Assembly: GCA_035640355.1 (NCBI GenBank)
Contig: DASQWI010000002.1
Coordinates: 62,001-126,000 of the forward strand
DNA length: 64,000 nucleotides
Reading direction: 5' to 3'
Source of the DNA: Actinomycetota bacterium
GTDB lineage: Bacteria; Actinomycetota; UBA4738; HRBIN12
In this document: positions 24,164-63,702 of the stretch, piece by piece
Layout of the letters: each line of letters begins with the position of its first letter
How positions within the stretch are numbered: the stretch's first letter is position 1
Notes under the pieces: model-generated
Told to the model about the DNA's origin: nothing
Database searches by the model: none
What the model saw: only the letters and a program-made list of their open reading frames with translations
Program-made: the position numbers and the translations under genes

Positions 24164-24180
24164 TGACCGTCGCCGCGGCG

Positions 24181-28342: not shown

Positions 28343-28345
28343 CAA

Positions 28346-30038: not shown

Positions 30039-30044
30039 ATCGGG

Positions 30045-30073: not shown

Positions 30074-30099
30074 CACAGATGCGACCTGTCAGCCATTAC

Positions 30100-30129: not shown

Positions 30130-30249
30130 AGGCACCACGGCGCGCAGGGACGTAGTCCCAGGGGTCTTTCCGCCGGACCCGGAACTGGCGCGAGCACCAC
30201 GGCTGATTCCGCCCAGCCAAGCGAACTCAGGACATCGAGGAGCAGCTTG

Positions 30250-33311: not shown

Positions 33312-33367
33312 GATCGGTGCGAGACCTCCATTCCGGCCGCCTCAGACCAAAGCGTCGCCTCGGCAGG

Positions 33368-34342: not shown

Positions 34343-34345
34343 TGG

Positions 34346-35371
34346 TTATCGGCGGCCGGAGATGCCCTTCAGCTCGTCCTCAAACTCCACTCGCGTTCGA
34401 CCATCCGGCCGCGACTCAATCTTGAGCTTGTCTTCGGCGACCTCGGGCGGGGCCAGCAGTATCAGACCACTCTCGAAATCGAGACGCATCTTCTGAATAC
34501 GCGACTTCACGAGCTCCAGGTTCTTCGGGAACGCGCGAATCGGTATCTCCCAGTTGCGTAGCGCATCCAGATAACGGTCCTGGTCCTCGACCTCCAAGTG
34601 CTCGATCGCGAAGTTTCGAGGTTGTACCCGATCTACGGCTCTCGACACTTCGCTCAGTAGAGCAATCTGATATCGCGCTTTGCGGCTGGGGTCCAGTACG
34701 TCATCGTTGATGAAACTCTCTGTGGCATCGACGAACCGCCTAGTGATGACGTCTGGTGCCATCCTCAGCGTGCATCCCAGGAACTTCCGTAGGAAGAAAT
34801 CAGCGACGGCCGAACCCGGGATCTGATTGTCCGAGACGAGACCTACGACTACATCCCCATCCTGCCAGAACAACCCAGCTTTGAAGACCCGCGTCCGTTC
34901 AGTGAGCATGAGTTCTCGAATGTGCTGCAGGCTCAGAGTGTGCTTTCCACTTACCGTGGCCTCGCGTACTCGAACACCTTGCTCCTTCTCAAGCTTGAGG
35001 ACGGCCACCGATGCGGTTCCTTCCAGGGATCCAGTGGCAACGACGAGCAGGCCGCCCGAGTTAGCCCCCGTCTGCACGGCGTTGAGGTGTTGCGCCATCT
35101 TCTTTGACCTTGAAACAAGGCGCTGACTGCCCGCTAGCAGGGCCCCCACCAGTTCGGGCATAGGTGATGTCGAGTTCGCATCGAAGAGGACGTCAAACGC
35201 AGCCCTCCGAAGCGACCCCCGGATGCGTTCCCGGAAATAGTTCTTCAGCTCTGCGTTGAGCGGTGGCGCAGCGTCGCTCAGATTCGGCTCTACTCCTTCA
35301 GTGTCGACGAGTCGATATGGGACCTCGTGAACGATCACACGCCCAATTCGGAGGGACCCGAGATCAGCCAC
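34346..35371 (-). CDS. NA37 (37-kDa nucleoid-associated) family-like protein
   Basis: A 341-residue protein resembling the NA37/YejK family: SRSKKMAQHLNAVQTGANSGGLLVV, ASVAVLKLEKEQGVRV and HIRELMLTERTRVFKAGLFW are the characteristic stretches. Members bind DNA and are often found in mobile and defence loci; biochemical function is little known. The GTG start lies 200 bases from the tRNA-Val gene, and the RelA/SpoT gene follows three bases after the stop. It is the first gene of a two-gene cassette between terminase and attR. Confidence 0.72.
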   Translation of the reverse strand: MADLGSLRIGRVIVHEVPYRLVDTEGVEPNLSDAAPPLNAELKNYFRERIRGSLRRAAFDVLFDANSTSPMPELVGALLAGSQRLVSRSKKMAQHLNAVQTGANSGGLLVVATGSLEGTASVAVLKLEKEQGVRVREATVSGKHTLSLQHIRELMLTERTRVFKAGLFWQDGDVVVGLVSDNQIPGSAVADFFLRKFLGCTLRMAPDVITRRFVDATESFINDDVLDPSRKARYQIALLSEVSRAVDRVQPRNFAIEHLEVEDQDRYLDALRNWEIPIRAFPKNLELVKSRIQKMRLDFESGLILLAPPEVAEDKLKIESRPDGRTRVEFEDELKGISGRR

Positions 35372-35564
35372 CGGAGTACTCCTGTATCTCGGCGGAATTC
35401 TCCATCACCGTGATAATCGGAGTCGACTCGGCGCGACTCAAGAGCCGGTCGTCTGGCTCGCCGTGGCTCAAGAGAGTCCGCAAGGCGCTCCTGATGTGCG
35501 CGCATGTGCGCGCTCGTGGTCTCCCTGAAGATCGATCGGTCAGGATTACTCCGCTGACCTGCGA

Positions 35565-35617
35565 CTACGTGGTGGGCGCGGCAGGTTTTGAACCTGCGAC
35601 CTCTTGCGTGTGAAGCA
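35565..35617 (-). repeat. attR of element A within tRNA-Val(CAC)
   Basis: Identical to attL at 23704-23756. It covers the 3' 48 bases of the intact tRNA and five flanking bases. TGACCTGCG at 35555-35563, just inside the element, repeats the motif seen beside attL and beside the element B junction. Confidence 0.92.
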
Positions 35618-48269: not shown

Positions 48270-48526
48270 GGCGTCCGTTCACATCAGTCCCTCCAGGAAG
48301 ATGATCGGAGTTCTTCGCATCCATCGATTGGAGGTGACGAATGTGTCGCTGCGTTGGACCCCTGAATGGCTCAGATCCTTTCAGCGAGACGGTCGCGCAA
48401 AATGCTCATGCCCGCGTGCACGGAGTCGCACAAGAGGTCGATCGATCCCTTGATATACACGTCCTTCTGCGTTCAGGAAGAGGTCAGCCACCGGCGAAAA
48501 GGTGGGTTGACCTGCGGCTTTGCTCG

Positions 48527-48572
48527 TGGGCGCTAGAGGATTCGAACCTCTGGCCTCTTCCGCGTCAAGGAA
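48527..48572 (-). repeat. attL of element B: displaced 3' half of tRNA-Val (anticodon GAC)
   Basis: On the minus strand this reads as the 3' half of a tRNA: anticodon loop TTGACGC (GAC, Val), 3' anticodon stem GGAAG, five-base variable loop, T-arm AGAGG/TTCGAAT/CCTCT, acceptor 3' strand AGCGCCC and discriminator A, without an encoded CCA. The 5' half is absent: the matching anticodon stem breaks after four of five pairs. The structure mirrors attL of element A, so the intact tRNA-Val(GAC) should lie at the right end beyond the window. Confidence 0.85.
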
Positions 48573-48599
48573 CGGCAGGCATGACGACCGCCATGCCGC

Positions 48600-48621
48600 T
48601 GACCTGCGGATCCATCGAATG
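48600..48621 (+). promoter_or_regulatory. Conserved att-flanking motif of element B (TGACCTGCGGATC type)
   Basis: Matches 20 of 22 bases of the motif at 23785 and has the same 36-base distance from the anticodon. Another TGACCTGCGG lies on the other side of the tRNA fragment at 48508-48517. A tandem GTGCCCAACG motif follows near 48690-48710. Probably recombinase or excisionase sites. Confidence 0.55.
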
Positions 48622-48764
48622 CGCTGGTCAGAGGACGTGACAGGTGAACCCGTTGGAACGTCGGAAACGGGTGAAACGGATGTGATGTGCCCAACGCGTG
48701 CCCAACGGCTGAGGCGCCAACGGGTGGGCGTATCGTTCGCCTCACCAGGCTTGAAGGGAGGCGG

Positions 48765-49178
48765 ATGGTGAAGGAACCCAAGGATGAGGCCGCCATCTGG
48801 GAGCTCTACGAGAAGGAGATCCGGGCAGCACTCCTCGAGGAATCTCCATCCTGGAGCGCGCGTGAAGCGGTCAACATGCGTCTAGCAGAAACCTACGCGC
48901 AACTCGAGCCGTACCTCGAAGCACAGAGGACGCTCGCCATCCATGAGGGCTACCAGCAGGCTCTCAGCAGGGACACCCGGTCGCGCGGACTCTTTGATGC
49001 GGACGAGCCGTTGGCCGTCGAATTGAAGAAGGTCCGCGAGGAGATAACCGAGCAGCGCGACAAGATCGCTGATCTCGAGGAGCAGTTCAGGGACAAGCTA
49101 CAACGTGTCCAAATGCTTCGGGCGCTGCGCGAGAGTCTACCCACCGCCGAGAACGGCGCCGATCGGGAACCGCCCTAG
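48765..49178 (+). CDS. Coiled-coil protein at the left end of element B
   Basis: A 137-residue charged helical protein, with a long C-terminal coiled coil (VELKKVREEITEQRDKIADL and onward). No family recognised. ATG 48765 has GGGAGG upstream. It is the first gene inside attL and is followed after five bases by the zinc-ribbon-like gene. Element A lacks it. Confidence 0.65.
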   Translation: MVKEPKDEAAIWELYEKEIRAALLEESPSWSAREAVNMRLAETYAQLEPYLEAQRTLAIHEGYQQALSRDTRSRGLFDADEPLAVELKKVREEITEQRDKIADLEEQFRDKLQRVQMLRALRESLPTAENGADREPP

Positions 49179-49183
49179 AGAGG

Positions 49184-49495
49184 ATGCCCGAGCGGGAACG
49201 CCACATCCTTGAGCGAGCGGTCCGAATCGTTGCAGAGCAGGCCGCGAAGGCGGACGCACTCGTCGACGAGGCGATCGCTACCGGCCTCGATGGGTCACAC
49301 CCCGTCACCCTCCAAGCGAAGATGCTCCGCCTCGAACTACTGAACGTAAAAGCTGGCCTCGACCGCGAACTAGGCCGGCTCGTACTTCATTGCTCCGACT
49401 GCGGGCGCACGGTTCACTGGGTCACGGGCTTGGGGAACGCTCCCGGTCACTGGGCTCACCGCGAACCAGCGCCGCATGGCGAACCCAACCTGTAG
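49184..49495 (+). CDS. Small protein with a CxxC pair and HWAHREPAPHG tail
   Basis: A 103-residue protein: an N-terminal helical region (HILERAVRIVAEQAAKADALVDEAI), then HCSDCGRTVHW and the C-terminal HWAHREPAPHG, a Cys/His arrangement that could bind zinc. Function unknown. A decayed copy of its end is recognisable in element A at 24181-24278, so it belongs to the family backbone at the left end. Confidence 0.65.
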   Translation: MPERERHILERAVRIVAEQAAKADALVDEAIATGLDGSHPVTLQAKMLRLELLNVKAGLDRELGRLVLHCSDCGRTVHWVTGLGNAPGHWAHREPAPHGEPNL

Positions 49496-49505
49496 CTCGC
49501 TTCGC

Positions 49506-49991
49506 TCAAACTGGAAGTCCGTGCTTCGTAAGAACTCTCTCCCAAGCCGCTAATGCGCGCGCTCCGACATCGGAGAGCCTCTCCCACCGACCGTTCACCT
49601 CGATCATGAACACGTCAACCGGCCCGCCTCGGAGCGTGAAGGGAGGATTACCTCTCAATCCGGCACCGCCGCGCTGTGCGCCTGTATCAATAGTCTCAGT
49701 CTGGACCGATGTTCGACGCCGTTCGACGTGCTTCAGGCCATTGCACACGTCCCACACGAGTTGCACCGGGTGAGCAGGGTCACCGCGGCATTCTGTCTTC
49801 ATCTCACCGGCGGCTGCCCCGGCCGCTGGTCGGTCATCCTTCTCGAGCCATTCCCGCAGCGGGGCGGCCGTGCAGACGAAGTTGATGGCGTCATCTGACG
49901 TCGCGGTTTTCGCTTCCTGAAGTCGCTGTAGATCTCGTCGAGCTTTGTCGAGCAGGTTCTTGTACGTCCAGCCTAGAAAGGCGGCAATCAT
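49506..49991 (-). CDS. Hypothetical protein, cargo of element B
   Basis: A 161-residue soluble protein with no recognised domain. The first half is helical with a FVCTAAPLREWLEKDD segment and LVWDVCNGLKHVERRR, a His near a helix end reminiscent of HEPN-like folds but without a convincing R-x4-6-H motif. The last part has beta-rich FTLRGGPVDVFMIEVNGRWERL. The ATG is at 49991. Slightly lower GC than its neighbours. Confidence 0.55.
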   Translation of the reverse strand: MIAAFLGWTYKNLLDKARRDLQRLQEAKTATSDDAINFVCTAAPLREWLEKDDRPAAGAAAGEMKTECRGDPAHPVQLVWDVCNGLKHVERRRTSVQTETIDTGAQRGGAGLRGNPPFTLRGGPVDVFMIEVNGRWERLSDVGARALAAWERVLTKHGLPV

Positions 49992-50049
49992 CTGGTCAGC
50001 TTAGACAGGGCCCACACCGACATAGGCGATGCAGGGTTCGGGGCCCGGG

Positions 50050-51258
50050 CTACTCTTGGCGAATGATCTGTGGATCGATCACGATCGAGTCGGGGAGGAA
50101 CGCGCGCATTCGATGCTTCGCGACGACGAGTCCGCCTTCTTGCGTGCGCTCCAGCAAATCCAACTCGATGAGTCGTCGCGCGTCGCGCCGAACGGTCTTC
50201 TCTGTCATGCGCGCGTACGTCTCCCCAAGCTCGGGCGAGAGATCGGGCAACTCGGACAACCGGAAGGCTGTCCCCTCCTGATACCTCGACATCGCGAGAA
50301 CAACCTTCGCGAGTCGATGACCGAGCTCGCTAGGCAACGAGTCGACAACTTCGTAGATGTAGTTTTCCCACGCCACATCGAGCTGCGCCTCTTGGATGCG
50401 AGCGATCTGGGCGCGCAGTCCGTCGACGAACCCCTCCGTCGCGTACTCGATGAACTCGACGAGGTCGCCGCCATTGCGACTGACGCCCGCGAGCCGTTGG
50501 TAGTACCGCGAGCGTGTGAGGTTGTAGTGATTCGAGAGCAGATGCGCCGCCGGGAATGGCACTCCGTTGGAGAGGAGAATCTGGAACTCGAGGAGGCGGC
50601 CGGTCCTGCCGTTGCCGTCCCCGAAGGGGTGGATCAACTCGAAGTAGAGGTGGGCGCAGATCGCCTTGAGGATCACATACGTAAGGTGGACGTCCGGCTG
50701 ATCTTCGGGGGGAGCGAACTCATCCCGGAGCCAGTCGAGCATCCGGCGCATGAGGTAGTCGAGGTCCTCCGCGGGCGCGCCTCGGTACGGTCCGGCGATG
50801 ACCGAGTGCATCCGAAGCTCACCCGGAACGACCTCTGGCGGGAGCTCAAGGCCCTTAAGAACCACCCGGTTCCACTCGCTGATCGTCTCGAGAGTTGGAT
50901 CGCTTGGCCCGTTGACTTTGAGATCGTCGGCGATCGAGTTGAACGCCCCGATCATGTTCTGGACCTCCACCTCGAGGTACTCCTGGGACCGTGGAAGGTC
51001 GAGGTCCCCCGTCTCGACGATCGCTCGGACCTGCTCCTCCGTAAGAGTGTTGCCTTCGATCGAGGTGGTCGCCCATGCACCCTTCGCGAGGTAGACACGA
51101 TGGAGCTCCTCGGCGACTGCCGGTCGCAGCGGCACGCCGCGGATGTGCTCGACTTTGCTAGTCGCCTCCCCGAGCAGCATCCATAGCCGACCCCCGGCCG
51201 ACCGGATGTCGACCTTGAACTTCAACCACGGATGTGACGTCTCATACGCTCTGGGCAC
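50050..51258 (-). CDS. Fic domain protein (AMPylase-type) with N-terminal inhibitory motif
   Basis: A 402-residue class II Fic protein. The N-terminal DUF4172-like region contains ATTSIEGNTLT, matching the (S/T)xxxE(G/N) inhibitory helix. The Fic core has IHPFGDGNGRTGRLLEF with the catalytic His and phosphate-binding loop, and a C-terminal winged HTH (YARMTEKTVRRDARRLIELDLL). It would transfer AMP or another nucleotide part to a target protein and is held in check by its own Glu. GTG 51258 has GGAGAAGG seven bases upstream; a longer start at 51297 lacks a ribosome-binding site. Probable cargo; may act as an intrinsic toxin-antitoxin or defence factor. Confidence 0.88.
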   Translation of the reverse strand: MPRAYETSHPWLKFKVDIRSAGGRLWMLLGEATSKVEHIRGVPLRPAVAEELHRVYLAKGAWATTSIEGNTLTEEQVRAIVETGDLDLPRSQEYLEVEVQNMIGAFNSIADDLKVNGPSDPTLETISEWNRVVLKGLELPPEVVPGELRMHSVIAGPYRGAPAEDLDYLMRRMLDWLRDEFAPPEDQPDVHLTYVILKAICAHLYFELIHPFGDGNGRTGRLLEFQILLSNGVPFPAAHLLSNHYNLTRSRYYQRLAGVSRNGGDLVEFIEYATEGFVDGLRAQIARIQEAQLDVAWENYIYEVVDSLPSELGHRLAKVVLAMSRYQEGTAFRLSELPDLSPELGETYARMTEKTVRRDARRLIELDLLERTQEGGLVVAKHRMRAFLPDSIVIDPQIIRQE

Positions 51259-51452
51259 TGAATCACCTTCTCCTGTCCCGGCACCTGTCCTGGTCATAGC
51301 TATGCTGACCAGGCATTATGCTCGATATCGGCCTCGCTTGGGTCGCTCTTGAGTCGGATTCTGCCGCATTCCGTGTCCCCAGCATAGAGCCTGTGTGTCC
51401 TACGACCGGATGCGGGTCAGTTCCCCCGTGCTCGGTTCGAAGGAACTCCTGG

Positions 51453-51477
51453 AGGGGCGGCGCACGACGCCGCCCCT
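51453..51477. terminator. Strong GC-rich hairpin after the DUF4236-TPR gene
   Basis: AGGGGCGGCG and CGCCGCCCCT form a perfect ten-base-pair stem with a CACGA loop, 41 bases after the stop of the minus-strand DUF4236 gene. No T-run follows on either strand, so termination would rely on the stem or Rho. Confidence 0.5.
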
Positions 51478-51518
51478 AACTCGTCGGATGGGTGGCCGAA
51501 GCTGACCGGCGCGGCTTG

Positions 51519-52577
51519 TTAAGGCGGAGGAGGAAGCTCCATCTCTGCCGGCTGCGCAACCCCCAACCGCTCGGCAACATCCATGAAGCGTGAGTCCTCG
51601 GCGTAGATCCGCTCGAGATCCTTCTTCGCCATCGCCTTCTTCCGACTCGCTTCGTACGCCAGCGCGCGGACGTACCGGGCGGCTCGGAGAAGTTCGGGCG
51701 GTCGTTTCGTGCTCCTGAGCGCCTCCTTGGCGGCGGCGATCGCGGAGTCCAGCAGTCTGAGCTCGTACAAAGCGTTTGCGCGCAGCGCCACGAGCTCACA
51801 CGTGGCGTCGTCCTGGTTGGAGAAGCCCTCGCTGACGCGAACAACCTCGTTCCAGGCCGACTCGCCGGTGTACAGCTCGGCGAGGGACAAGGCGAAGATC
51901 GGATCGGGGGCGACGGACCCAAGCGACTCAAGGAGTTCGATCGCATTTCTCGTGTCTCCGGTCTCCTGGTAGAGCTCCGCGAGCATCAGGGCCGCGCCGA
52001 CCGGACTGATGGGGAGCTCCGCCACAACGCTCGATGTGACTTGTATCCGAGTCATCCCCGTGACGCCGTACTTGACCATGAGCGGATCGGGAAGCCCCAC
52101 GGACGACGCGACGACGTCCTCAAGCGGATCGATCGCGTCTTTGTACCGCTCGAGCGCGATGAGCGACATGGCCGCGAAATACTCCTCGCCGACGTGCCGC
52201 TCGCTCGCGTCTCGAGCTCGGACGTCCTGGAGTAACCGGACGGCCTCTTCGTGGCGCCCTTGCATGTACGCCGTGACGCCCTGAACGAACAGCTTCTCCT
52301 CTTTTGGTGCGAGGAGGCCAGCCTTCGGGAACATTTGAACGGGAGGCGCGACCGTGCGAGATGAGCTGGAGCGAGCACGTGACGAGGTGCCCGCCCGTGA
52401 GTCCTTCCGGTAGTAGAGGCCCGTGCCAGGAATCCCGGCGGTCTTGGTGGTTCGACCCGACGAATGGACCGAGTAGCGGAGACCGGGGACGCCGGCCGAG
52501 ACCCCGACCCCTGTCTTCGAGAGATTGAGACGTACGCCCTTACCGAGCCTCACTGACTTGTACAGGCGGAACCCCAT
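51519..52577 (-). CDS. DUF4236 plus TPR-repeat protein
   Basis: A 352-residue protein. Residues 1-57 are DUF4236 (MGFRLYKSVRLGKGVRLNLSKTG, then GVPGLRYSVHSSGR and GIPGTGLYYRK), a small glycine-rich beta domain often at the N-terminus of phage and bacterial surface or defence proteins. A Ser/Arg linker and about 230 residues of tetratricopeptide-like helices follow (GVTAYMQGRHEEAVRLL, MLAELYQETGDTRNAIELL). Likely a protein-binding scaffold. It lies between integrase and Fic, all minus strand. Confidence 0.78.
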   Translation of the reverse strand: MGFRLYKSVRLGKGVRLNLSKTGVGVSAGVPGLRYSVHSSGRTTKTAGIPGTGLYYRKDSRAGTSSRARSSSSRTVAPPVQMFPKAGLLAPKEEKLFVQGVTAYMQGRHEEAVRLLQDVRARDASERHVGEEYFAAMSLIALERYKDAIDPLEDVVASSVGLPDPLMVKYGVTGMTRIQVTSSVVAELPISPVGAALMLAELYQETGDTRNAIELLESLGSVAPDPIFALSLAELYTGESAWNEVVRVSEGFSNQDDATCELVALRANALYELRLLDSAIAAAKEALRSTKRPPELLRAARYVRALAYEASRKKAMAKKDLERIYAEDSRFMDVAERLGVAQPAEMELPPPP

Positions 52578-52667
52578 AGGAGATCCCTTTCCGTAGCTCG
52601 CGCCCTTGTACGGCGTTCGGGGAGACCAGTCAAACCGGCGGCTCCGACCACCCCACAGGACCGGAAG

Positions 52668-53954
52668 TTATGTCGACGGCCGTGATCTCGCCTCTCCGAT
52701 CTCGACGACATCGAAGGACTTCGGTGCGGCCCCCGTCTGCCGGTACAGCGCGTCGAGGCCATCGGCGGCTCCCTGGTCGAGACCCTCAAGCAGGTGTCCA
52801 TAGACATCCATTGACACGCGGATCGACGCGTGGCCGAGGCGATCGGCGATCGTCTTCGGATGCTCCCTTCGCGCGATGAGCATCGCGGCGTGCGAATGCC
52901 GCATGTCGTGAAACCGAAGCGGCTCCCCCACGGACGCTCGCACAGCTGGCATCCAGAAGCGCTGCCTGAACGTGTTACGGCGAAGTGGTCCACTACCGGG
53001 CGCGGTGAACACGTATCCATCGGCTGGCTTGCCTTGGACTTCCGCGGCGAGCAGCTCTACCAGGAACGACGGCACCGAAATCGTCCGACGGGAACGCCGC
53101 GTCTTGCACGGCGAGACCACGATCTCGCCGCGAACCTCGTTGAGCGTCTCCTCGATGCGGATCTGTCGGCGCAGGAAGTCGATGCGTTCGACTCGTAACG
53201 CCGCCAACTCACCGAATCTTGCGCCCGTATATGCGGCAGTGAGAACGAGCGTGCGATACCGCGGATCGATCGCATCCGCGAGTCGAGTGATCTGCTCGGC
53301 GTCGAGGAACCGCTGCTCCGTGTGCTCGCCGTTCGGCAGGATCTCGCCGAGCTCGACGTCCTCGAGTGGTGATCGTGGGATCCACCGCTTCCTAGCGGCG
53401 TAGCGCATCACGCGGCCGAGGAGCTGGAACGCCTTTTGAATGGTTGACCTCGCGCAGCCTCGATCGACGAGAGACGCGAGCCAGCGTTCGACCGCGGTCT
53501 CTGAGATATCGCGGATCGGAACGTCTGCGAACGTGGGAAGCACGAGGCTGTTCATCACCGACTCGTCGCGTGCCCGCGTCGAGGTTCGGCGGCCGGCGCT
53601 CGTCGTCTTGACGATCTCAGCGACGTCGGCGAACGCTCGACGGCCGTCGCGTGCCGTTGGCGTCGACTCGTTCCGCCGGCGGCGACTGTCCTCGTCGTGC
53701 AAGTGATCACGGGCGGCGCCGAGCGTCTGGTGCGACTTCTTGTGTGATCGACCCGCTGCGTCGCGCCACCGCGCAAACCAACGATCTATCTCGACCGGCT
53801 CGCCGATCTGAACGCCACCGCGCTCGACCTCGCGACGAAGCAGCGTCATGGCCTCCGTCGCCGTCGGACATGCACGCCGATGCTCTTGGCCAGCGGCGTC
53901 TCGCCAACGGGCCTCGACCATCCGGCTGATACGCGGATCACCTCTGCGTGCCAC
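52668..53954 (-). CDS. Tyrosine integrase of element B with duplicated N-terminal arm-binding unit
   Basis: A 428-residue phage-type integrase with Arg in TGARFGELAAL, HxxR in HDMRHSHAAML, His in LGHASIRVSM and Tyr in DVYGHLLEG. The N-terminus has two copies of a similar unit, VEARWRDAAGQEHRRA and WFARWRDAAGRSHKKS, each followed by T-x-x-x-A and a helix, where the element A enzyme has one. It is only distantly similar to that enzyme, in line with a different tRNA target (Val-GAC). GTG start with AAAGGAGA, overlapping the regulator gene by 17 bases, as in element A. Confidence 0.94.
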   Translation of the reverse strand: MARRGDPRISRMVEARWRDAAGQEHRRACPTATEAMTLLRREVERGGVQIGEPVEIDRWFARWRDAAGRSHKKSHQTLGAARDHLHDEDSRRRRNESTPTARDGRRAFADVAEIVKTTSAGRRTSTRARDESVMNSLVLPTFADVPIRDISETAVERWLASLVDRGCARSTIQKAFQLLGRVMRYAARKRWIPRSPLEDVELGEILPNGEHTEQRFLDAEQITRLADAIDPRYRTLVLTAAYTGARFGELAALRVERIDFLRRQIRIEETLNEVRGEIVVSPCKTRRSRRTISVPSFLVELLAAEVQGKPADGYVFTAPGSGPLRRNTFRQRFWMPAVRASVGEPLRFHDMRHSHAAMLIARREHPKTIADRLGHASIRVSMDVYGHLLEGLDQGAADGLDALYRQTGAAPKSFDVVEIGEARSRPST

Positions 53955-54588
53955 GACTGTCTCCTTTCCGTGATCGGCTGCTCGATGGTTTCTTCGCCTT
54001 GGTCACCGTGGCGTCAGCCGAGAGTCGGGCGTGCTTCCTCGGAGTCGGCCCGGCCGCGGCGAGGTGCACCGTTCCTGACGCCTTGCCCTTGCCAGCTCTC
54101 GTCAGTAGTCCGAGCTCGCGCGCTCGCGAGACGTACTTCGCGGCTCGGCCGTAGGAGACACCGAACGCCCGCTCGACTGCCCGCGTCGGCGCCTCGCCTT
54201 TGCGTCGCGCCTCTGCGTACACCGCGGCGACTCGGATCCAGTGATCGGCGCCCAGCCGTGTCAGGCCCGACTTCGTGAGCCGCCGCTCGAGTTCCTCCCG
54301 GGCGGCCTCGTCGTCTATCTCCGCCATCCCGACGCCTGCGCGCAGGAGAGCACCTCGCGCGCGGCCAATCAGCGAGGCGACATTCAGTCGACGGACAGCT
54401 GTCGTCGTCAACGGCCGGCGCTTCCGGCCCGCCACGGGCGAAATCGTGAGACCGACAGGCTCGAGCCGGTCCTCTATCCAGTCGAACTGGAACAGAAGCG
54501 CCCAGTCTCTCTCCGTGTGTTTCACGCTCAGCGCCTCGGCGTCGGCATCCACGGCGACGAGAGTACCGAAGGGGGAACGGTTAGGCAA
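53938..54588 (-). CDS. HTH regulator-like protein of element B
   Basis: A 216-residue protein. The middle part has a helical DNA-binding look: VYAEARRKGEAPTRAVERAFGVSYGRAAKYVSRARELGLLT (about 123-165), a resolvase/MarR-like HTH found in many actinophage proteins, followed by a very basic Ser/Lys/Arg tail. The N-terminal domain (LLFQFDWIEDRLEPVGLTIS) is of unknown type. TTG start without Shine-Dalgarno; a TATAGG hexamer eight bases upstream suggests a leaderless or near-leaderless mRNA. It occupies the repressor slot upstream of the integrase. Confidence 0.7.
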   Translation of the reverse strand: MPNRSPFGTLVAVDADAEALSVKHTERDWALLFQFDWIEDRLEPVGLTISPVAGRKRRPLTTTAVRRLNVASLIGRARGALLRAGVGMAEIDDEAAREELERRLTKSGLTRLGADHWIRVAAVYAEARRKGEAPTRAVERAFGVSYGRAAKYVSRARELGLLTRAGKGKASGTVHLAAAGPTPRKHARLSADATVTKAKKPSSSRSRKGDSRGTQR

Positions 54589-54596
54589 GAGGTATC

Positions 54597-54641
54597 CCTA
54601 TAGGTGCCTACCCCTCACTTGCCAGAACTAGCCAGGGGTAG
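54597..54641. promoter_or_regulatory. Divergent control region of element B with an inverted repeat
   Basis: CTACCCCT (54608-54615) and AGGGGTAG (54634-54641) are perfect inverted repeats with an 18-base spacer. A TATAGG -10-like hexamer for the leftward gene is at 54602-54597. Position between regulator and Cro-like genes makes this the likely operator of the lysogeny-like switch. Confidence 0.5.
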
Positions 54642-54685
54642 GGGGTGGCACGTGCTCCCCCCCCATCTTTACCCTCGCTCTCAGC

Positions 54686-54928
54686 ATGACCACCAAGCGA
54701 TTGCTCGAGTTGGCAAAGGTCCGCGAGCTAGCGGTGAGCGGCGAAGCCAAGCGACTACGCGAGAAGGTCGGCCACCTGTCACTTGCTGAGGTCGCCGACC
54801 TCTGCGGCGTCTCTCCTGTGTCCGTGTGGCGATGGGAGCAAGGCGAAAAGCGTCCTCACGGAACGCCCGCGATTCGATTCCTCCGTCTGCTTGAGCAGCT
54901 TCGAGATCAGGAGGGCCTGTATGTCTGA
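54686..54928 (+). CDS. Small HTH protein, Cro-like position
   Basis: An 80-residue protein with one HTH: HLSLAEVADLCGVSPVSVWRWEQGEKRPHGTPAIRFLRLL. It is the first gene of the rightward operon, like the XRE protein at 30250 in element A, although the two are only weakly alike. ATG start; the next gene overlaps by eight bases. Confidence 0.8.
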   Translation: MTTKRLLELAKVRELAVSGEAKRLREKVGHLSLAEVADLCGVSPVSVWRWEQGEKRPHGTPAIRFLRLLEQLRDQEGLYV

Positions 54929-55799
54929 CGCCACTGCAACACGAGCCGTCACCGACGACGACCCGGAGAACGATCAGAACGACGACCTCTCCGACGGCGG
55001 GCAGCAGGACATGGACACGGGAACGACCCTCGGCCCGAACGCGACGCGGGAAGAATACGAAGCCGCGTCGCCGGCCGAGCAACGCCGGTTTGACGCTGAC
55101 CACACTGACCGCCTCGGCGAGTGGACTGAGGAAGACCGTCAACGATCCGAGGCCGTCAGCTTCGACGACGAGGCGATTGAGCGCGAAGCCGCTGCGATCG
55201 ACGAGGTGTTCGACGACGTCGCCGTCGGGCGGCTAGTTGAAGAGGCCATGCAGCTCGAGCAAGGCGCTCGCGATGGCACTGTCGTCTTCCAGGATGCGGA
55301 AGAGCGAACGAAGTACGAAGCCGCGATCATGAGCGTCACGGCGTCCGGCTCGCTGGGAGCTCACCCAACGTTGTCGGACGGGTCCTCTCGATTCAGCGCG
55401 GACCCGGAGTATCTAGCCGCCGTCCGTCGCCTCGCCGCGATGACGACGCTCATTCAACAGGCGCTTCCGGCGGCCGAGCTCATGGGTGGCGTCCATCGAG
55501 TCGAACGTCCCGATCAGTTCGGCAACGTCGACGTGTTCATCGGTGGACGATTTGTGGAGCGCGTCACGCCGGAGCAAGCCGCGGAGCGCGAAGAGGCACA
55601 GCGCCGCGACGAAGAGGAACGAGCCAAGTTCCCGTACGGACAGCCCGACAGGCTCGGCGTTGTCACGCTCTCACCCGACGATGTTCGAGCCTGGCCCGGA
55701 GGCCGGTGGCTCGAGTTCGGTCGACGATTTCCCGACCTTCAAGACGCGCTTTTGAAGGGCAATGCGATCCGTTTCACACCGCCCCGAGAGGAGGGCTAG
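54921..55799 (+). CDS. Conserved element protein with FPYG-x-PDR C-terminal block
   Basis: A 292-residue acidic, mostly helical protein (long Asp/Glu-rich N-terminus of about 90 residues). The last 60 residues, from EEAQRRDEEERAKFPYG to LLKGNAIRF, match the element A protein at 30718; the conserved frame is FPYG-x-PDR-x-G-x-VTL-x-P-x-DV, WP, and F-x-RR-F-PDL-x-x-LLKG. No known family recognised. ATG follows AGGAGGG. In A its counterpart precedes the terminase directly; here the operon has eight or nine further genes between. Confidence 0.75.
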   Translation: MSDATATRAVTDDDPENDQNDDLSDGGQQDMDTGTTLGPNATREEYEAASPAEQRRFDADHTDRLGEWTEEDRQRSEAVSFDDEAIEREAAAIDEVFDDVAVGRLVEEAMQLEQGARDGTVVFQDAEERTKYEAAIMSVTASGSLGAHPTLSDGSSRFSADPEYLAAVRRLAAMTTLIQQALPAAELMGGVHRVERPDQFGNVDVFIGGRFVERVTPEQAAEREEAQRRDEEERAKFPYGQPDRLGVVTLSPDDVRAWPGGRWLEFGRRFPDLQDALLKGNAIRFTPPREEG

Positions 55800-55802
55800 C
55801 GC

Positions 55803-56186
55803 ATGGGCAACACCGTCAAAGGCGCCACCGTTCGTTCGCGGACGATCGAGAACGACGAAGAGGTGCAGGTCTCCTCTCTCGACAGAGGCGAGGTTCCGAC
55901 CGTCGCGTTTGCTTCGTTCGGCACGAGCCCCGCGTTGACGTCGATGCGGGGAGGTTCCGGCCGGTTCCGGATGCGCGTGACAAGCGGGACCGGCACTCCA
56001 GCGATCGCCGCGAACAATATCCAGATCACGTGTGGATTCGCCCCGCGCAAGGTGTTCCTCGACGCGGGGACGCAGGCGCCCGGGTTCTACGTCGCGTCCA
56101 TCTCGGGGAACGTCATCAACATCGGCACGAAGGTCGCGCCGGCGGCGTCGACCGCCTTCGACTTCGAGCTCGTCGTGTTGCCGTAA
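55803..56186 (+). CDS. Small beta-rich protein, possible virion or decoration-like protein
   Basis: A 127-residue protein predicted all-beta: VRSRTIENDEEVQVSS, RFRMRVTSGTGTPAIAANNIQITCGF, VASISGNVINIGTKVAPAASTAF. Composition (Gly, Thr, Val, Ala, few charges) and the run of short strands are like phage head-fibre, decoration or tail-fibre-tip domains. No family assigned. Start ATG with GAGGAGGG; three bases after the FPYG gene. Present only in B. Confidence 0.6.
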   Translation: MGNTVKGATVRSRTIENDEEVQVSSLDRGEVPTVAFASFGTSPALTSMRGGSGRFRMRVTSGTGTPAIAANNIQITCGFAPRKVFLDAGTQAPGFYVASISGNVINIGTKVAPAASTAFDFELVVLP

Positions 56187-56198
56187 GAGGGAGGAGTC

Positions 56199-56447
56199 GT
56201 GGGACTCGCATGCAGAACGTGCCGCGGAATGGGACGACTGAGGGATGGCTCTGACTGTCCCGTCTGCGTCGGCGGACAGCCGGATCCGTTCCCGCCGCGC
56301 GAGGTTTTGAACGATACGAACCAGTTCCGTCCGCCGATTCGACACGCTCGCGACTTGGGACCGAGCGAGGCAACACCGAGCGGCAACACCGTCGCCGGCG
56401 CGCTCGCTGCACCGGATGAACCGAGCGGGAGCGCTGACGATCGGTGA
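56199..56447 (+). CDS. Small protein with a DnaJ-like CxxCxGxG zinc finger
   Basis: An 82-residue protein starting MGLACRTCRGMGRLRDGSDCPVC, one unit of the CxxCxGxG zinc finger as in DnaJ central domains, then a Pro-rich disordered tail. GTG start with GAGGGAGGAG. May bind nucleic acid or unfolded protein; coupled to the next gene by GTGA. Confidence 0.6.
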   Translation: MGLACRTCRGMGRLRDGSDCPVCVGGQPDPFPPREVLNDTNQFRPPIRHARDLGPSEATPSGNTVAGALAAPDEPSGSADDR

Positions 56448-56743
56448 TCGCTACGTACGACATTAGACCCGGCGAGCTTGCGGTCCGCGCTTCTCGTCGA
56501 GTGGCCTGTTCTTCACCGCTCCGCGCCGACGTCTTCGGCAGACACTTCATCGTCCTCCTCGACCGCGGCGTCGTCTACCTGCTTGACGAGCTGTTGGCAG
56601 AGGACTTCGCGAAGCAGGATCCGCGGGTGGTCATCGTGCCCGCCGATCGCGGCAGCCTGCCAGCGATCTTGCAACCAAGCGAACGTAGAGACGCTCAACG
56701 ATGGATGCGTGGCGAGCTCCGAGCTGTGGGGGCGTCGCGTTGA
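56444..56743 (+). CDS. Hypothetical protein, element B operon
   Basis: A 99-residue protein with a compact mixed fold (GRHFIVLLDRGVVYLLDELLAEDFAKQDPRVVIVPADRG). No recognised family. GTG start overlaps the upstream stop, and its own stop overlaps the TTG of the next gene, so it is part of a tightly coupled run. Confidence 0.55.
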   Translation: MIATYDIRPGELAVRASRRVACSSPLRADVFGRHFIVLLDRGVVYLLDELLAEDFAKQDPRVVIVPADRGSLPAILQPSERRDAQRWMRGELRAVGASR

Positions 56744-56955
56744 CGCGGCTGCTCAACCTCGGTGAGGTCGCCACCCGTCTGAGCGTCAGCAAGACGACCG
56801 CCTGGAGACTGCTCAAGAGCGGCGCCATCCCCTCCATCGAGGTGACAAGCAAGCTCCGCCGCGTCGATGAACGCGACCTCGAGCGGTTCATCGACGAACG
56901 GCGCGGACGAGCGGATCACGCCGACGTAGTCCCGCTCTCGAACCGGACAGCGTGA
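56740..56955 (+). CDS. Excisionase/MerR-like HTH_17 DNA-binding protein
   Basis: A 71-residue protein: LLNLGEVATRLSVSKTTAWRLLKSGAIPSIEVTSKLRRVDERDLERFIDERR, a textbook winged HTH of the excisionase (HTH_17) family, which bends DNA at att sites. It starts with TTG in a TTGA overlap. Candidate recombination directionality factor or regulator of element B. No equivalent is visible in element A. Confidence 0.75.
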   Translation: MTRLLNLGEVATRLSVSKTTAWRLLKSGAIPSIEVTSKLRRVDERDLERFIDERRGRADHADVVPLSNRTA

Positions 56956-57113
56956 TGGCGCGATCACGCAACAGTCGCGGACTCAAGCTCCTCCGTGAAG
57001 CCGAACGTCGCGAACGTCGTGACGCACGGCGAGCGGAGCGATTGCTACGAGCTGAGGACGCACGGCACCGCAGAACCGCGGGAGATCAGCAACAGAGCGG
57101 GAAGGAATCGTGA
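56955..57113 (+). CDS. Small highly basic protein
   Basis: A 52-residue peptide, about a third Arg, in one long helix (LLREAERRERRDARRAERLL). It is linked to neighbours by a TGATG overlap upstream and a GTGA overlap downstream, which supports real translation. It may bind nucleic acid. Too short for family recognition. Confidence 0.5.
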   Translation: MARSRNSRGLKLLREAERRERRDARRAERLLRAEDARHRRTAGDQQQSGKES

Positions 57114-57505
57114 GCACCGACGTCGACGTTCTCGCCCGCGTCCGTCGTTACCGCGAGGCCGCACGCATAGCCGTTCGTGCGGACGCGTCGTTCAAGGATC
57201 GATGCCTGGCGCTCCTCGACATCGCCGATATGGCGCGCGAAGAGGAAGACGTCACGATCCGCACTTGGGCGGAGCGAGCGATCTGGGAGGAGTCGAAGGC
57301 GTTCCTCGGGATGGACGACGCCGAGCCCGAGCTTCCTCATCCGAGCTACGAGCAGCGCGTGCGTCGGCTGCGAGCGCAAGGTCTCGTCGCCTGTCGCGAG
57401 TGTCTCCATCCATTGCCGACGGACGAAGAGCTCGAGCGGTGGAGTCGCCTCCGTCGGGACTACACCGAACTGCGAGAGGCGCGCGAACAGGCAGTCGAGT
57501 CGTGA
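57110..57505 (+). CDS. Hypothetical helical protein, element B operon
   Basis: A 131-residue charged helical protein with a central ACRECLHPLP turn (two Cys, no second pair). No known domain. GTG start overlapping the preceding stop; its stop overlaps the GTG of the RepA-like gene. Possibly an accessory replication protein given the next gene, but only by position. Confidence 0.55.
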   Translation: MSTDVDVLARVRRYREAARIAVRADASFKDRCLALLDIADMAREEEDVTIRTWAERAIWEESKAFLGMDDAEPELPHPSYEQRVRRLRAQGLVACRECLHPLPTDEELERWSRLRRDYTELREAREQAVES

Positions 57506-58578
57506 GAGATCCCGTTGCCGTGACGGCGCACCTGGAGAAGTTGAAGAGCAGCGCTCTTGAGATCCTCGGCCTCGAAGAAGTCATCGACCGTGTCGACCGG
57601 TCTGGCGCTCCGCGCTTTCTCGTCGAGGGATTGTGGCCCGCTGACGCGTACGGCGTATTGGGTGCCGAGGACAAAGCCGGCAAGACATGGGCTGCGCTCG
57701 ACCTCGGCGTCTCGGTCGCGACCGGAACGCCGTGGTTCGGACGGTTCACATGCCCCAGCCCGGGACCCGTGACGCTCTTCCTCGGTGAGGGCGGAGAACG
57801 GTACTTCCTGAGGCGTCTGGAGGCGATCAGCGCCAGCCGAGCGCTCCCGATCGTCGATCTCATCGGGTCCGTGCGAGCGTGCTTCTCCGTTCCTCGGCTG
57901 CGCGATCGCGACCAGCTCGCAGAGGTGAGGGCGGAGCTCGAGGATCACTCTCCCAAGCTCGTCGTGATCGACCCCCTGTACCTCGCCGCCGCTGGAGCCA
58001 AGGGCTCGGACCTCTACGAGATGGGAGACGTCCTCGGTGGCGTTCAGCGCCTTACCCAGGAGGCAAAGGCGGCCCTGGTCGTCACCACACACTGGAACAA
58101 GACGGGCACCGGCAGTGGACCGGAGCGGTTCACCGGTGTTGGCCCTGGCGCGTGGGGCCGCGTGCTCGCTTCGGCTGCGGTCGAGCGTCGCGGCCAGGAC
58201 CCCGACGGCTCAAGCGTCGTCCTGCTCCGATGGGACTTCCGTGGCAGCGAGATCCCCGACACCGTCTTTCGGATGCGCCGGCGCGTCCGGAGCGACGACC
58301 CCCGGAGCCTCACCGCCCGGCTGTTCTACGAGGTAGAGGTGACCAGCGAGAGTGAGGACGTCGTGTCCTCGGAGGCCCGGATCTTCGCCGTGCTCGAGGC
58401 GGCTGGCATCGACGGCCTGAGCGTCCGTGAGATCGGGGACGCCCTGGCGAGCGACGGAAGGGGCAAGCCGCTCACCGTCCGCACGATCCAGCGGGTCCTG
58501 AACGACCTGGCCGAAGCTGGCCGGATTGACGGCGAGAAGGGCGACCGCGGCCGCCCGGGGCGGTGGTGGCTGACGTGA
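57502..58578 (+). CDS. RepA-like RecA-fold ATPase/helicase with C-terminal winged helix
   Basis: A 358-residue protein of the AAA_25/RepA (hexameric helicase-like) group. Walker A is VLGAEDKAGKTWAALDL (near residue 52), Walker B is PKLVVIDPLYLAAAG (near 155), followed by VVTTHWNKTGTGSG and VGPGAWGRVLASAAV motifs. Residues about 305-358 form a winged HTH (GLSVREIGDAL, TIQRVLNDLAEAGRI). Such proteins are replicative helicases or initiators of plasmids and phage-like elements. The iteron-like cluster begins three bases after the stop, which supports a role at that site. Absent from element A. Confidence 0.82.
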   Translation: MRDPVAVTAHLEKLKSSALEILGLEEVIDRVDRSGAPRFLVEGLWPADAYGVLGAEDKAGKTWAALDLGVSVATGTPWFGRFTCPSPGPVTLFLGEGGERYFLRRLEAISASRALPIVDLIGSVRACFSVPRLRDRDQLAEVRAELEDHSPKLVVIDPLYLAAAGAKGSDLYEMGDVLGGVQRLTQEAKAALVVTTHWNKTGTGSGPERFTGVGPGAWGRVLASAAVERRGQDPDGSSVVLLRWDFRGSEIPDTVFRMRRRVRSDDPRSLTARLFYEVEVTSESEDVVSSEARIFAVLEAAGIDGLSVREIGDALASDGRGKPLTVRTIQRVLNDLAEAGRIDGEKGDRGRPGRWWLT

Positions 58579-58580
58579 TG

Positions 58581-58775
58581 TGCGACATGGTGCGACATGG
58601 TGCGACACGCGAAATGTCGCAGCGACATGAGGTGCGACATTTGGGTGCGACCCCTATAGGTGGGGGCGCTTGTCGCACCCCCCACCCGAGTCCTACGCCC
58701 CGACAGGGTGCGACACGGGCAATGTCGCACCTCCCGCCCCAGGTGAGCGACACCCGGCCGACGTCCGCTGTCGCA
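58581..58775 (+). repeat. Iteron-like cluster of TGCGACA repeats, possible origin
   Basis: TGCGACA occurs on the plus strand at 58581, 58591, 58601, 58633 and 58709, with near-copies at 58622, 58646 and 58747, and in reverse as TGTCGCA at 58615, 58671, 58723 and 58769. The first three are spaced exactly ten bases (one helical turn). A short palindromic CCTATAGG sits at 58653-58660. Placed immediately after the RepA-like gene, it could be its origin; a terminase recognition (cos/pac) site is an alternative. An open frame across it (58563-58952) has repeat-derived composition and is not called. Confidence 0.7.
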
Positions 58776-58948
58776 CCACTGAAGACACCCGGACGCAACC
58801 CCGGGAAGAGTGCCCCTGGAGGCCGACCCACTCTCTTCCCCGGAGGAAACCGTGCCGAACTGCCCTCACCCGGAGCCAGCCCTCCCGATCTGGCCGCTGA
58901 TCCGCCCGCTGGCCGAGGATCGACGTCGCGAGCGTCGGAGCGGTTGCC

Positions 58949-59422
58949 GTGAGGATCGGACACGCCACCTTCGGGCCGTGGGTCGTGGACCTCGACGGCT
59001 TGGTGCTCGATCTCACCGCCGGACCTGATCGCGCATCCTGCCGCTACGAGATCGACCTCGAGCGGTGCACGACGCCGGCGGAGGTCCTCGACTGGATCTT
59101 CCAGGTCCGGGGGAAGGCGTTCGCCTCGCCTGAGGTCCTCACCGGGCTGATTCATGCGTTGCAAGCCACGCTCGACCCTCAGGCGACGCTGTGTTCGTGG
59201 GGCGTGGCCAAGGACGCCCCGGTCACGGCTGCTGACGTTCGCCGCCGGCTGATCGAGTACCTCGGGGTTCACGACGCCGAGGAGGAGCTCCGAGAGAGCG
59301 AGGCCTCGGAAAGGTCTCCGGCGTTCAGCTTCGTGGCGTTCAACTTGAGGGAGTGGCATGAGGCAACCGAGCGCCACGCCAAGCGTTGGGAGGCGGCCAT
59401 CGACGCCGCGTCAACGCCATGA
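58949..59422 (+). CDS. Hypothetical protein, element B operon
   Basis: A 157-residue protein, beta strands first (IGHATFGPWVVDLDGLVLDL) and then helices, ending KRWEAAIDAASTP. The middle (EVLDWIFQVRGKAFASPEVLTGLI) resembles small phage proteins of unknown role. GTG start, without a strong ribosome-binding site. No family recognised. Confidence 0.6.
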   Translation: MRIGHATFGPWVVDLDGLVLDLTAGPDRASCRYEIDLERCTTPAEVLDWIFQVRGKAFASPEVLTGLIHALQATLDPQATLCSWGVAKDAPVTAADVRRRLIEYLGVHDAEEELRESEASERSPAFSFVAFNLREWHEATERHAKRWEAAIDAASTP

Positions 59423-59826
59423 GAACGAGGCAGGCTGATCCCGCCGAGCTGTGCCATACACGTGCCCAACGACTGTTCGCGGTACCGCTGGCCAGCGCCG
59501 TTCCAGTGGCCTCTTCCCCGTCGAGGAAGCGCGGGCGGCATTCCTCCGCCCCATCGGAGCCGCCGAGCCGAGCTCGAACGCCGCGGCACGACGTAGGAGG
59601 CCGCGACTGCGCCGTCGCGCTCGCTGGTGGGCCCCGCCAGCGCCGCGATCGAGAGCTGCAACCGCGCGCGCGCGCACGCCTGCGGCAGGTCTTTGACCCG
59701 GGGGATGTTCCCCTGGCCTCTTCAACCCCTGTAGTTAGCTTGCTCCTCGGCCATGTCCAACGCCGACCCAGACGTTGTCGCAGGTCCCACAGCCGCTCCC
59801 TCTCGTCTCCGAAGGCCGCGGTCTGA
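59419..59826 (+). CDS. Doubtful Arg-rich open frame before the terminase
   Basis: A 135-codon frame that starts in an ATGA overlap with the upstream gene and stops in a TGATG overlap with the terminase start. Those junctions argue for translation. The protein is Arg/Ser/Pro-rich with no predicted structure, and the minus strand is equally open, so it could be filler between two real genes. If genuine, position suggests a small terminase-like DNA-binding protein. In element A nothing corresponds. Confidence 0.35.
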   Translation: MRTRQADPAELCHTRAQRLFAVPLASAVPVASSPSRKRGRHSSAPSEPPSRARTPRHDVGGRDCAVALAGGPRQRRDRELQPRARARLRQVFDPGDVPLASSTPVVSLLLGHVQRRPRRCRRSHSRSLSSPKAAV

Positions 59827-61766
59827 TGCCGGGGAACCGGATCTCGTCGGCGCAGAAGTCGCGCTTCTTCCGCCTGCTCGAAACCGGCATGACCGTCCCG
59901 CAGGCCGGAAGGCAGGTCGGCATTAGCCGACAGAGCGCCTGGCGCCTCTCGGTCGGGCTGGATGGCACCTACCCAGTGTCGCGTTCGATCGCCGAGGCCG
60001 AGCGTCGCGACGAGCAGCAGCCGGACCCCAAGCCGTGGGACGAGCTCGACGATGGCGCGCGCGAGGCCCTGCGGTCGTTCTCCGTCTTCGCCGAGCGATT
60101 CCTGCTGCGCAGGCCCGTGCCGTGGCGTGAGGATGCGGCGCAGCGTGTGGTCGAGGCGTTGCAGGACCGGAGCACTCGCTCGTATCACGTACTGAACATG
60201 CCGCCCGGCAGCGGCAAGTCGACGCTGTTCACGATGGACCTCGTCGTCTGGCTCCTCGCCGGCGGTGGTCGGTGCGATCCGCTTCGCGGGCGGGCGACCA
60301 GGATCATGCTCGGGAGCTTCGGCTACAAGGTAGCGACGCACTATGTCGGCCGGATCGCTCGCCTCCTCGAATCGCCGCGACCGTTCTACGACAAGGGCAG
60401 GTCGCTCCGTGCGGAGCGCTCAATCGTGCATGCGTTCGGGAGGTTCAAGCCGCGACAGCAAGGGATCCCATGGAAGGCCGACGAGTTCATCGTCGAGCAG
60501 CTCGAGGACGTCGATCTGAGCGAGAAGGAGCCGAGCTGCCAGGCGGCCTCGTTCGAATCGCGGTTCCTCGGCGAGCGCGTTGAGCTCGCGATCTGGGACG
60601 ACCTCGTCACGACGGCGAACGTCCGATCCGTTGAGGTCCGAACCGAGCTCGCGCGTTGGTATGAGGATGAGGTGGAGTCGCGTGTCGAGCCGGGCGGTTC
60701 GCTCCTGCTCGTCGGTCAGCGTCTCTCTCCCGATGACTTGTATCGGTCGAGGCTCGACATCAACTACGTGGACGATGAAGGCGTGCCACGCCGCAAGTAC
60801 ACCCACGTGAAGTACCCGGCGCATCACGAGGCGACGTGCGATGTCGCCACGCCGAACGGATCGCATCGCCAGTGGGACGCGCGTGAAGACGGCTGTTTGT
60901 TGGACGCAGAGCGATTGTCGTGGGCGGAGCTGCAGGCGGAACGCGCATCGAACCCTCGGAAGTTTCAGCTCGTGTATCAGCAGCTAGACGTAGATCCGTC
61001 CTCCGCGTTGGTCGATCCGGCATGGCTCGAGGGCGGTGTCGATCGCGACGGCGTCCTCGCGCCGGGGTGTCGCGACGAGGACCGAGGGTTCCTCGAATGG
61101 CCGCAGGGCGTCTCGGGTCTCGTCGACTACGTGTCCGTCGACCCGAGCGCCGGCAACTTCTGGGGCATCGAGTGGTGGGCGATCCAACCCGAGACGAAGG
61201 TTCGATACCTCATCCGAGGACTTCGCTCGTCGCGGTTCACTGCCGGCGATCTCCTGCAGTGGTCCACGTCGCGAAGTGACCTGACCGGCCTCATGCAAGA
61301 GTGGCAAGTGCTATCCCTCGAACTCCATCATCCGATCCGGTGCTGGGTGATCGAGGGGAACTCGGCGTTCAAAGGGTTGGTGCAATACGACCACTTCCGC
61401 GCGTGGCAACGACGCCACGGCGCGGCGGTGATCCTGCATCAGACGCAGCGGAACAAGAACGATGAACAGACGGGCGTCGAGGCTCTGCTGCCGCCCCTCT
61501 ACCGACAGGGACTCAAACGACTGCCGGCGAGCCGTGGCGACATGGACGCGCGAGGGTTCACGATCAAGTTCGCGAAGGAGCTCACCGAGTACCCCGAATC
61601 AGCGACGAAGGACTTGGTGATGGCAGATTGGCAAGCGGAGTGGAACATGGCGAAGATCCTTGCGGTCGGTCGTCGTGCTACCGGCCGTGCGATCGTCGAC
61701 ACGGCGCTCCCGCCGTACCTCGAGGCGAAACGGGGCGAGATCGAGTTCGAGGACGCGCTTTCGTGA
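59826..61766 (+). CDS. Large terminase with N-terminal HTH (element B)
   Basis: A 646-residue homologue of the element A terminase. N-terminal HTH: KSRFFRLLETGMTVPQAGRQVGISRQSAW. Walker A: LNMPPGSGKSTLF (near 124). Walker B-like LAIWDDL, and the nuclease Asp in SVDPSAGNFWG with Glu in CWVIEGNSAF. Long stretches, for example YTHVKYPAHHEATCDV and TGVEAL with LYRQGLKRLPASRGDMD, are the same in A. The HTH is the most divergent part, as expected if it reads different recognition sites. ATG start overlaps the preceding stop (TGATG). Last gene of the rightward operon. Confidence 0.88.
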   Translation: MPGNRISSAQKSRFFRLLETGMTVPQAGRQVGISRQSAWRLSVGLDGTYPVSRSIAEAERRDEQQPDPKPWDELDDGAREALRSFSVFAERFLLRRPVPWREDAAQRVVEALQDRSTRSYHVLNMPPGSGKSTLFTMDLVVWLLAGGGRCDPLRGRATRIMLGSFGYKVATHYVGRIARLLESPRPFYDKGRSLRAERSIVHAFGRFKPRQQGIPWKADEFIVEQLEDVDLSEKEPSCQAASFESRFLGERVELAIWDDLVTTANVRSVEVRTELARWYEDEVESRVEPGGSLLLVGQRLSPDDLYRSRLDINYVDDEGVPRRKYTHVKYPAHHEATCDVATPNGSHRQWDAREDGCLLDAERLSWAELQAERASNPRKFQLVYQQLDVDPSSALVDPAWLEGGVDRDGVLAPGCRDEDRGFLEWPQGVSGLVDYVSVDPSAGNFWGIEWWAIQPETKVRYLIRGLRSSRFTAGDLLQWSTSRSDLTGLMQEWQVLSLELHHPIRCWVIEGNSAFKGLVQYDHFRAWQRRHGAAVILHQTQRNKNDEQTGVEALLPPLYRQGLKRLPASRGDMDARGFTIKFAKELTEYPESATKDLVMADWQAEWNMAKILAVGRRATGRAIVDTALPPYLEAKRGEIEFEDALS

Positions 61767-61787
61767 TGTCGTGAGCGATCTGCACTC

Positions 61788-62570: not shown

Positions 62571-62660
62571 GCCGCCATCGTGCAGGATTCGACACTAAGG
62601 ATGCCCACTTAGACAATCCGAAGGCCGGAGGGGAGAATCACGAACCGATCTTCAACCCAA

Positions 62661-63680: not shown

Positions 63681-63702
63681 TCCGGCAGTGTTTAGTCGAG
63701 AT

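What the first reader, a model, noticed from the sequence alone, without database searches (positions are those of the whole stretch)
48527..48572. A 3' half of a second tRNA-Val (anticodon GAC) marks the left end of element B
The fragment folds as a T-arm, variable loop, anticodon loop and 3' stem of tRNA-Val(GAC), and breaks inside the 5' anticodon stem just like attL of A. The family therefore seems to use tRNA-Val isoacceptors, each with its own integrase.
Basis: partly seen in the sequence, partly recalled or inferred. Interest (0 to 1): 0.68.

Follow-up and report, generated by a model that had tools for sequence, protein, structure and literature searches.

The report
Left end of a tRNA-Val-integrated satellite-like element
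A broken-off piece of a tRNA gene marks the exact left edge of a 15.9-kb mobile DNA element that inserted into the gene for valine tRNA; the intact gene sits, as predicted, at the other edge, so the boundary is an ordinary one, although the element itself (an integrase and a phage DNA-packaging motor gene but no capsid genes found) belongs to a little-known satellite-like group.

Summary
Confirmed. Window 48526-48572 is a 47-bp exact copy of the 3' part of tRNA-Val(GAC), broken one base into the 5' anticodon stem. The genome's only intact tRNA-Val(GAC) lies 386 bp beyond the window's right end (64385-64458, minus strand) and carries the second copy (64386-64432). Element B is therefore 15.9 kb between two direct repeats. 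It encodes a tyrosine integrase with all catalytic residues. Relatives keep the array tRNA-Gly-Cys-Val(GAC)-Val(CAC) without elements A or B, and three other genera carry displaced tRNA-Val(GAC) fragments broken at nearly the same point: a recurrent integration site.

A and B are one family: their terminase large subunits (TerL) are about 80% identical (dN/dS about 0.18). Their integrases are only 35% identical and have different putative arm repeats, so 'isoacceptors, each with its own integrase' fits this genome. It is not a rule: relatives of these integrases sit at Ala, Gly, Gln, Glu and Lys tRNAs.

New here: an element-end motif also lies just outside attL(B), so B probably landed in an older element's end. 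Both elements have integrase, regulator and TerL without detected capsid or portal genes: PICI-like satellites with TerL, inferred. The fragment itself is ordinary.

The parts
48526..48572 (-). attL(B): displaced 3' part of tRNA-Val(GAC), 47-bp direct repeat; second copy at 64386-64432, beyond the window
48526..64000 (.). Element B (continues to 64432; intact tRNA-Val(GAC) at 64385-64458 minus strand, then tRNA-Cys)
52668..53921 (-). IntB, tyrosine integrase (R, K, HxxR, H, Y all present)
   Evidence: Pfam PF00589 9e-21, phrog_1 6e-60, alignment
48600..48608 (+). TGACCTGCG end motif inside attL(B); its counterpart inside attR(B) is at 64369
48508..48516 (+). Same end motif OUTSIDE attL(B), at the spacing seen in attR: putative remnant of an older element's end
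48687..48706 (+). Direct repeat GTGCCCAAC x2 (11-bp period), putative IntB arm site; same pair at 64308/64319
54686..54928 (+). Small HTH_31/HTH_3 repressor-like gene (counterpart in A at 30250-30495)
54921..55799 (+). Conserved gene 'X' of unknown family, shared with A (44% over 137 aa)
56701..56955 (+). HTH_17 (AlpA/excisionase-like), candidate directionality factor
   Evidence: Pfam HTH_17 1.3e-10, phrog_66 7.7e-9
56995..58578 (+). AAA_25 RepA/helicase-like replication protein; 47% identical to one beside an integrase at tRNA-Val(GAC) in G020
59826..61766 (+). TerL (terminase large subunit) of B; 80% identical to TerL of A
   Evidence: phrog_38 2e-49
50050..51225 (-). Fic protein, SoFic-like defence candidate (cargo)
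51519..52577 (-). DUF4236 + TPR protein (cargo)
61788..62570 (-). Ion-channel protein (cargo, phrog_7872)
59507..59532 (-). Decayed tRNA-Val(GAC) anticodon-arm-like sequence inside B, 45 bp from a lone GTGCCCAAC at 59462
23704..35617 (.). Sister element A in tRNA-Val(CAC): attL 23704-23756, attR 35565-35617, intact tRNA 35570-35644 (-)
28346..29533 (-). IntA, integrase of A
31446..33311 (+). TerL of A

Best explanation
48526-48572 is attL of a 15.9-kb integrative element. IntB recombined the element's attP with the anticodon stem-loop region of the chromosomal tRNA-Val(GAC). The element's own copy of the tRNA 3' part rebuilt the gene on the right (attR), and the original 3' part was pushed to the left end, where it remains as the fragment. 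SHOWN: both repeats, the intact gene, a complete integrase gene inside, a sister element with the same TerL in tRNA-Val(CAC), and relatives without the insertions. INFERRED: that IntB still excises and integrates the element (with the HTH_17 protein as directionality factor), that the GTGCCCAAC pairs are its arm sites, and that after excision the element replicates with its AAA_25 protein and directs its own packaging with TerL into the capsids of a helper phage, i.e. a PICI-like satellite. Also inferred: B integrated at the end left by an earlier element. The confidence given is for the boundary and the integrase mechanism; the satellite step is about 0.6.
For: Exact 47-bp repeat and intact gene at the other end. 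Integrase with all catalytic residues; only four Phage_integrase genes in the genome: two far better-scoring matches on other contigs, probably the Xer pair, plus IntA and IntB. Ancestral order Gly-Cys-Val(GAC)-Val(CAC)-ABC gene in relatives, with Val(GAC) and Val(CAC) 236-257 bp apart in G005/G012 and about 650 bp in G006. Displaced tRNA-Val(GAC) 3' fragments with the same or nearly the same break in G003, G007 (two) and G009. Conserved end motif at all junctions and beside integrase-linked tRNAs of relatives. TerL under purifying selection between A and B, dN/dS about 0.18. No hit to Phage_capsid or Phage_portal in the whole genome. Principle of regenerated target plus displaced fragment: PMC4383910; anticodon stem-loop as integrase core: PMC8371274.
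Against: IntB lies about 4 kb from attL, whereas relatives' integrases are next to the tRNA. No excised circle or reads could be examined. The precise empty site of B itself is not seen in a relative, because 12.9 kb of extra DNA also separates Val(CAC) from attL(B). No helper phage or TerS is identified, so the satellite step rests on gene content.
Confidence: 0.94

Rival explanations
1. B is a decayed prophage: it was once a complete phage in tRNA-Val(GAC) and has lost its structural genes, leaving integrase, helicase and TerL.
For: TerL has its distant best matches in Streptomyces tailed phages; no helper is known; a decayed att-like sequence lies inside B.
Against: Two elements with diverged integrases both keep TerL and lack detected capsid/portal genes; TerL is under purifying selection; sizes of 11.9 and 15.9 kb fit satellites (PMC6092414).
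Confidence: 0.3
2. The fragment is a stray tRNA pseudogene or a product of homologous duplication, unrelated to an integrative element.
For: The fragment is not a functional tRNA.
Against: The break is at the anticodon stem, as in A and close to the breaks in three other genera; an integrase and satellite-like genes lie exactly between the repeats; the partner is the only intact gene copy.
Confidence: 0.02
3. B is a fusion of two tandem elements (48.5-59.5 kb and 59.5-64.4 kb) whose shared att site at 59.5 kb has decayed.
For: 26-bp tRNA-Val(GAC) anticodon-arm match at 59507-59532, score 42 against a shuffle maximum of 31, near a lone GTGCCCAAC; relative to A, B has about 4 kb extra between gene X and TerL ending there.
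Against: In A, gene X and TerL lie together in one element with no att between them; the end motif TGACCTGCG is absent at 59.5 kb.
Confidence: 0.25

Closest known systems
tRNA-integrated genomic islands mapped by displaced tRNA fragment and regenerated target (Islander principle, PMC4383910)
   Same: Fragment and intact gene mark the two ends; tyrosine integrase inside
   Different: Nothing of principle
Phage-inducible chromosomal islands (PICI; PMC6092414)
   Same: Integrase, regulator, AlpA/excisionase-like HTH (in B), replication gene (in B), 12-16 kb, no structural genes found, cargo at the sides
   Different: Carries TerL, where PICIs carry at most TerS; the integrase lies inside, about 4 kb from attL; no AlpA-like or rep gene detected in A
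Capsid-forming PICIs (cf-PICI)
   Same: Encode their own packaging genes (from general knowledge)
   Different: No capsid or portal gene found in A or B
PICMI satellites (PMC10803314)
   Same: Integrase and PF12728 HTH; no capsid remodelling genes
   Different: tRNA-Val instead of fis; TerL present; no primase of the PICMI type
Mulch/Flayer satellites of Streptomyces (PMC10690885)
   Same: Actinomycete satellites with packaging genes
   Different: Those encode encapsidation machinery; here only TerL was found

Membership tests
tRNA-integrated tyrosine-integrase genomic island | Intact tRNA gene at one end and its displaced fragment as direct repeat at the other | tested here: met
tRNA-integrated tyrosine-integrase genomic island | Integrase gene between the repeats with catalytic residues | tested here: met
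tRNA-integrated tyrosine-integrase genomic island | Unoccupied site in relatives | tested here: met
   Val(GAC)-Val(CAC) 236-257 bp apart in G005/G012; the exact empty junction of B was not seen
tRNA-integrated tyrosine-integrase genomic island | Excision as a circle | not testable with these tools
   no reads or cells
PICI | Integrase, replication module and regulator in divergent operons | tested here: inconclusive
   B: int on -, HTH/rep on +; the master repressor is not identified and A lacks a detected rep gene
PICI | No phage structural or lytic genes; about 12-15 kb | tested here: met
   11.9 and 15.9 kb; no capsid/portal families in the genome, none among element ORFs scanned
PICI | Phage-dependent induction and packaging | not testable with these tools
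   needs a helper phage
cf-PICI | Own capsid genes | tested here: not met
PICMI | Integration at fis with PICMI primase | tested here: not met
   site is tRNA-Val; no such primase among hits

The most novel reading that the evidence does not exclude
A and B are members of a new group of phage satellites in an uncultured actinobacterial class that carry their own TerL but no capsid, portal or detected TerS, and so would redirect a helper's packaging by replacing the motor rather than the recognition subunit; members swap integrases and arm sites and thereby occupy neighbouring tRNA-Val genes side by side in one chromosome.
Probability: 0.3. Interest if true: 0.6.

Novelty: new member of a known kind. 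Interest (0 to 1): 0.36.

Why it matters
It fixes both ends of the element to the base and confirms a blind prediction. It shows two sister elements sharing one chromosome by using different isoacceptor genes and diverged integrases. If the TerL-only satellite reading holds, it would give a testable case of packaging taken over through the motor protein.

Tried and rejected
TerL relatives: none confirmed in GTDB contigs, IMG/VR, 397 phylum genomes or plasmids; only weak phage hits of about 24%. Helicase relatives in IMG/VR: none. TerL structure: model too poor to use (pLDDT 32), so no fold search was run. PDB by sequence: none. A left tRNA-Val(GAC) fragment for a putative older element in 35.7-48.5 kb: best match no better than shuffles. 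BenE synteny in G007: only BenE itself matches. Arm-repeat pattern in IMG/VR: one exact match, not informative. tRNA-Val-specific integrase clade: not supported, not rejected.

Full report
OBSERVATION. The sequence at 48526-48572 is the 3' part of a tRNA-Val(GAC) on the minus strand: anticodon loop TTGACGC with four bases of the 5' stem, 3' anticodon stem, variable loop, T-arm, acceptor 3' strand and A73-C74. No tRNA is called there. A 25-base probe has exactly two matches in the 2,788,310-base genome with up to 3 mismatches. The second lies 386 bases right of the window end and is an intact minus-strand tRNA-Val(GAC), with tRNA-Cys(GCA) next to it. The two copies share 47 bp without mismatch.

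MECHANISM. Between the repeats lies one tyrosine integrase, IntB, with R, K, HxxR, H and Y all present. The repeat begins in the 5' anticodon stem, as it does in element A. This agrees with the anticodon stem-loop serving as the integrase core (PMC8371274) and with the rule that the regenerated target and the displaced fragment mark the island ends (PMC4383910).

RELATIVES. In the small class to which this genome belongs (27 genomes held), the order tRNA-Gly, tRNA-Cys, tRNA-Val(GAC), tRNA-Val(CAC), ABC-transporter gene recurs. Val(GAC) and Val(CAC) are 257 bp apart in G012, 236 bp in G005 and about 650 bp in G006; they are 4.5-4.7 kb apart in G008 and G015. In our genome the same ABC gene stops 70 bp short of attL(A), and 28.7 kb separates the two tRNA-Val genes. 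Displaced 3' fragments of tRNA-Val(GAC), broken at the same stem within about three bases, also occur in G003, twice in G007, and in G009, so this is a recurrent target. A near-identical copy of a neighbouring chromosomal protein is held for an uncultured-bacterium MAG and an 81% one for an Actinobacteria MAG.

ELEMENT ENDS. TGACCTGCG occurs five times in 67.7 kb, always within 30 bp of an att repeat: inside both ends of A (23785, 35555), inside both ends of B (48600, 64369), and once outside attL(B) (48508). In relatives the same sequence (read CGCAGGTCA on the tRNA strand), or a close variant, follows the integrase-linked tRNA in most cases, whatever the isotype, and is missing at most Val(GAC) genes without an adjacent integrase. 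It is missing outside attL(A). The copy at 48508 is best read as the end of an earlier element into which B integrated. The 12.9 kb between Val(CAC) and attL(B) (peptidase S51, RNase II, amidohydrolase, BenE) is also extra relative to kin, but no matching left fragment was found for it. Farther inside, B has GTGCCCAAC pairs at both ends, while A has GATGTACGC and ATGTGCGCG pairs at corresponding places. These are candidate arm sites that differ as the integrases do.

FAMILY. A and B share TerL (76% over the BLAST alignment; 80% over 621 codons, dN 0.16, dS 0.88), a small HTH gene, gene X, and the att-proximal DNA. Their integrases share 35%. B also has an HTH_17 gene and an AAA_25 replication protein, whose homologue in G020 lies beside an integrase at tRNA-Val(GAC). 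Cargo includes a SoFic-like Fic protein and an ion channel in B, and a cyclase-like protein and a RelA/SpoT protein in A. No capsid or portal family is found anywhere in the genome. TerL has no confirmed relative outside this genome in the collections scanned; the collection scans use short peptide patterns and can miss distant ones. The layout resembles PICIs as described in PMC6092414, with TerL in addition.

VERDICT. The boundary is certain and of a known kind. The isoacceptor interpretation holds for this genome but is not a rule of the integrase clade. The satellite reading is plausible and unproven.

Noticed in passing
48508-48516: Element-end motif outside attL(B): B probably integrated at an older element's end.
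   Followed up: partly
59462-59532: Decayed tRNA-Val(GAC) anticodon-arm-like sequence plus a lone GTGCCCAAC inside B, just before TerL.
   Followed up: partly
35720-48500: 12.9 kb between tRNA-Val(CAC) and attL(B) with metabolic genes (peptidase S51, RNase II, amidohydrolase, BenE), absent from this place in relatives.
   Followed up: partly
27061-27603 and 33368-34342: Element A carries a Pycsar-cyclase-like protein and a RelA/SpoT protein, defence-type cargo.
   Followed up: no
L084 5956-6057: tRNA-Val(GAC) of relative G007 carries a tandem duplication of about 28 bp over its anticodon arm; real or an assembly error.
   Followed up: no
L086 8532-8578: 3' fragment of tRNA-Cys in G020, 2.9 kb from the intact tRNA-Cys: the neighbouring tRNA is a target too.
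   Followed up: no
L011 (C17:198604-198676): tRNA-Gly(GCC) of this genome is followed by CCGCAGGTTAG, like an element end, without an integrase nearby.
   Followed up: no
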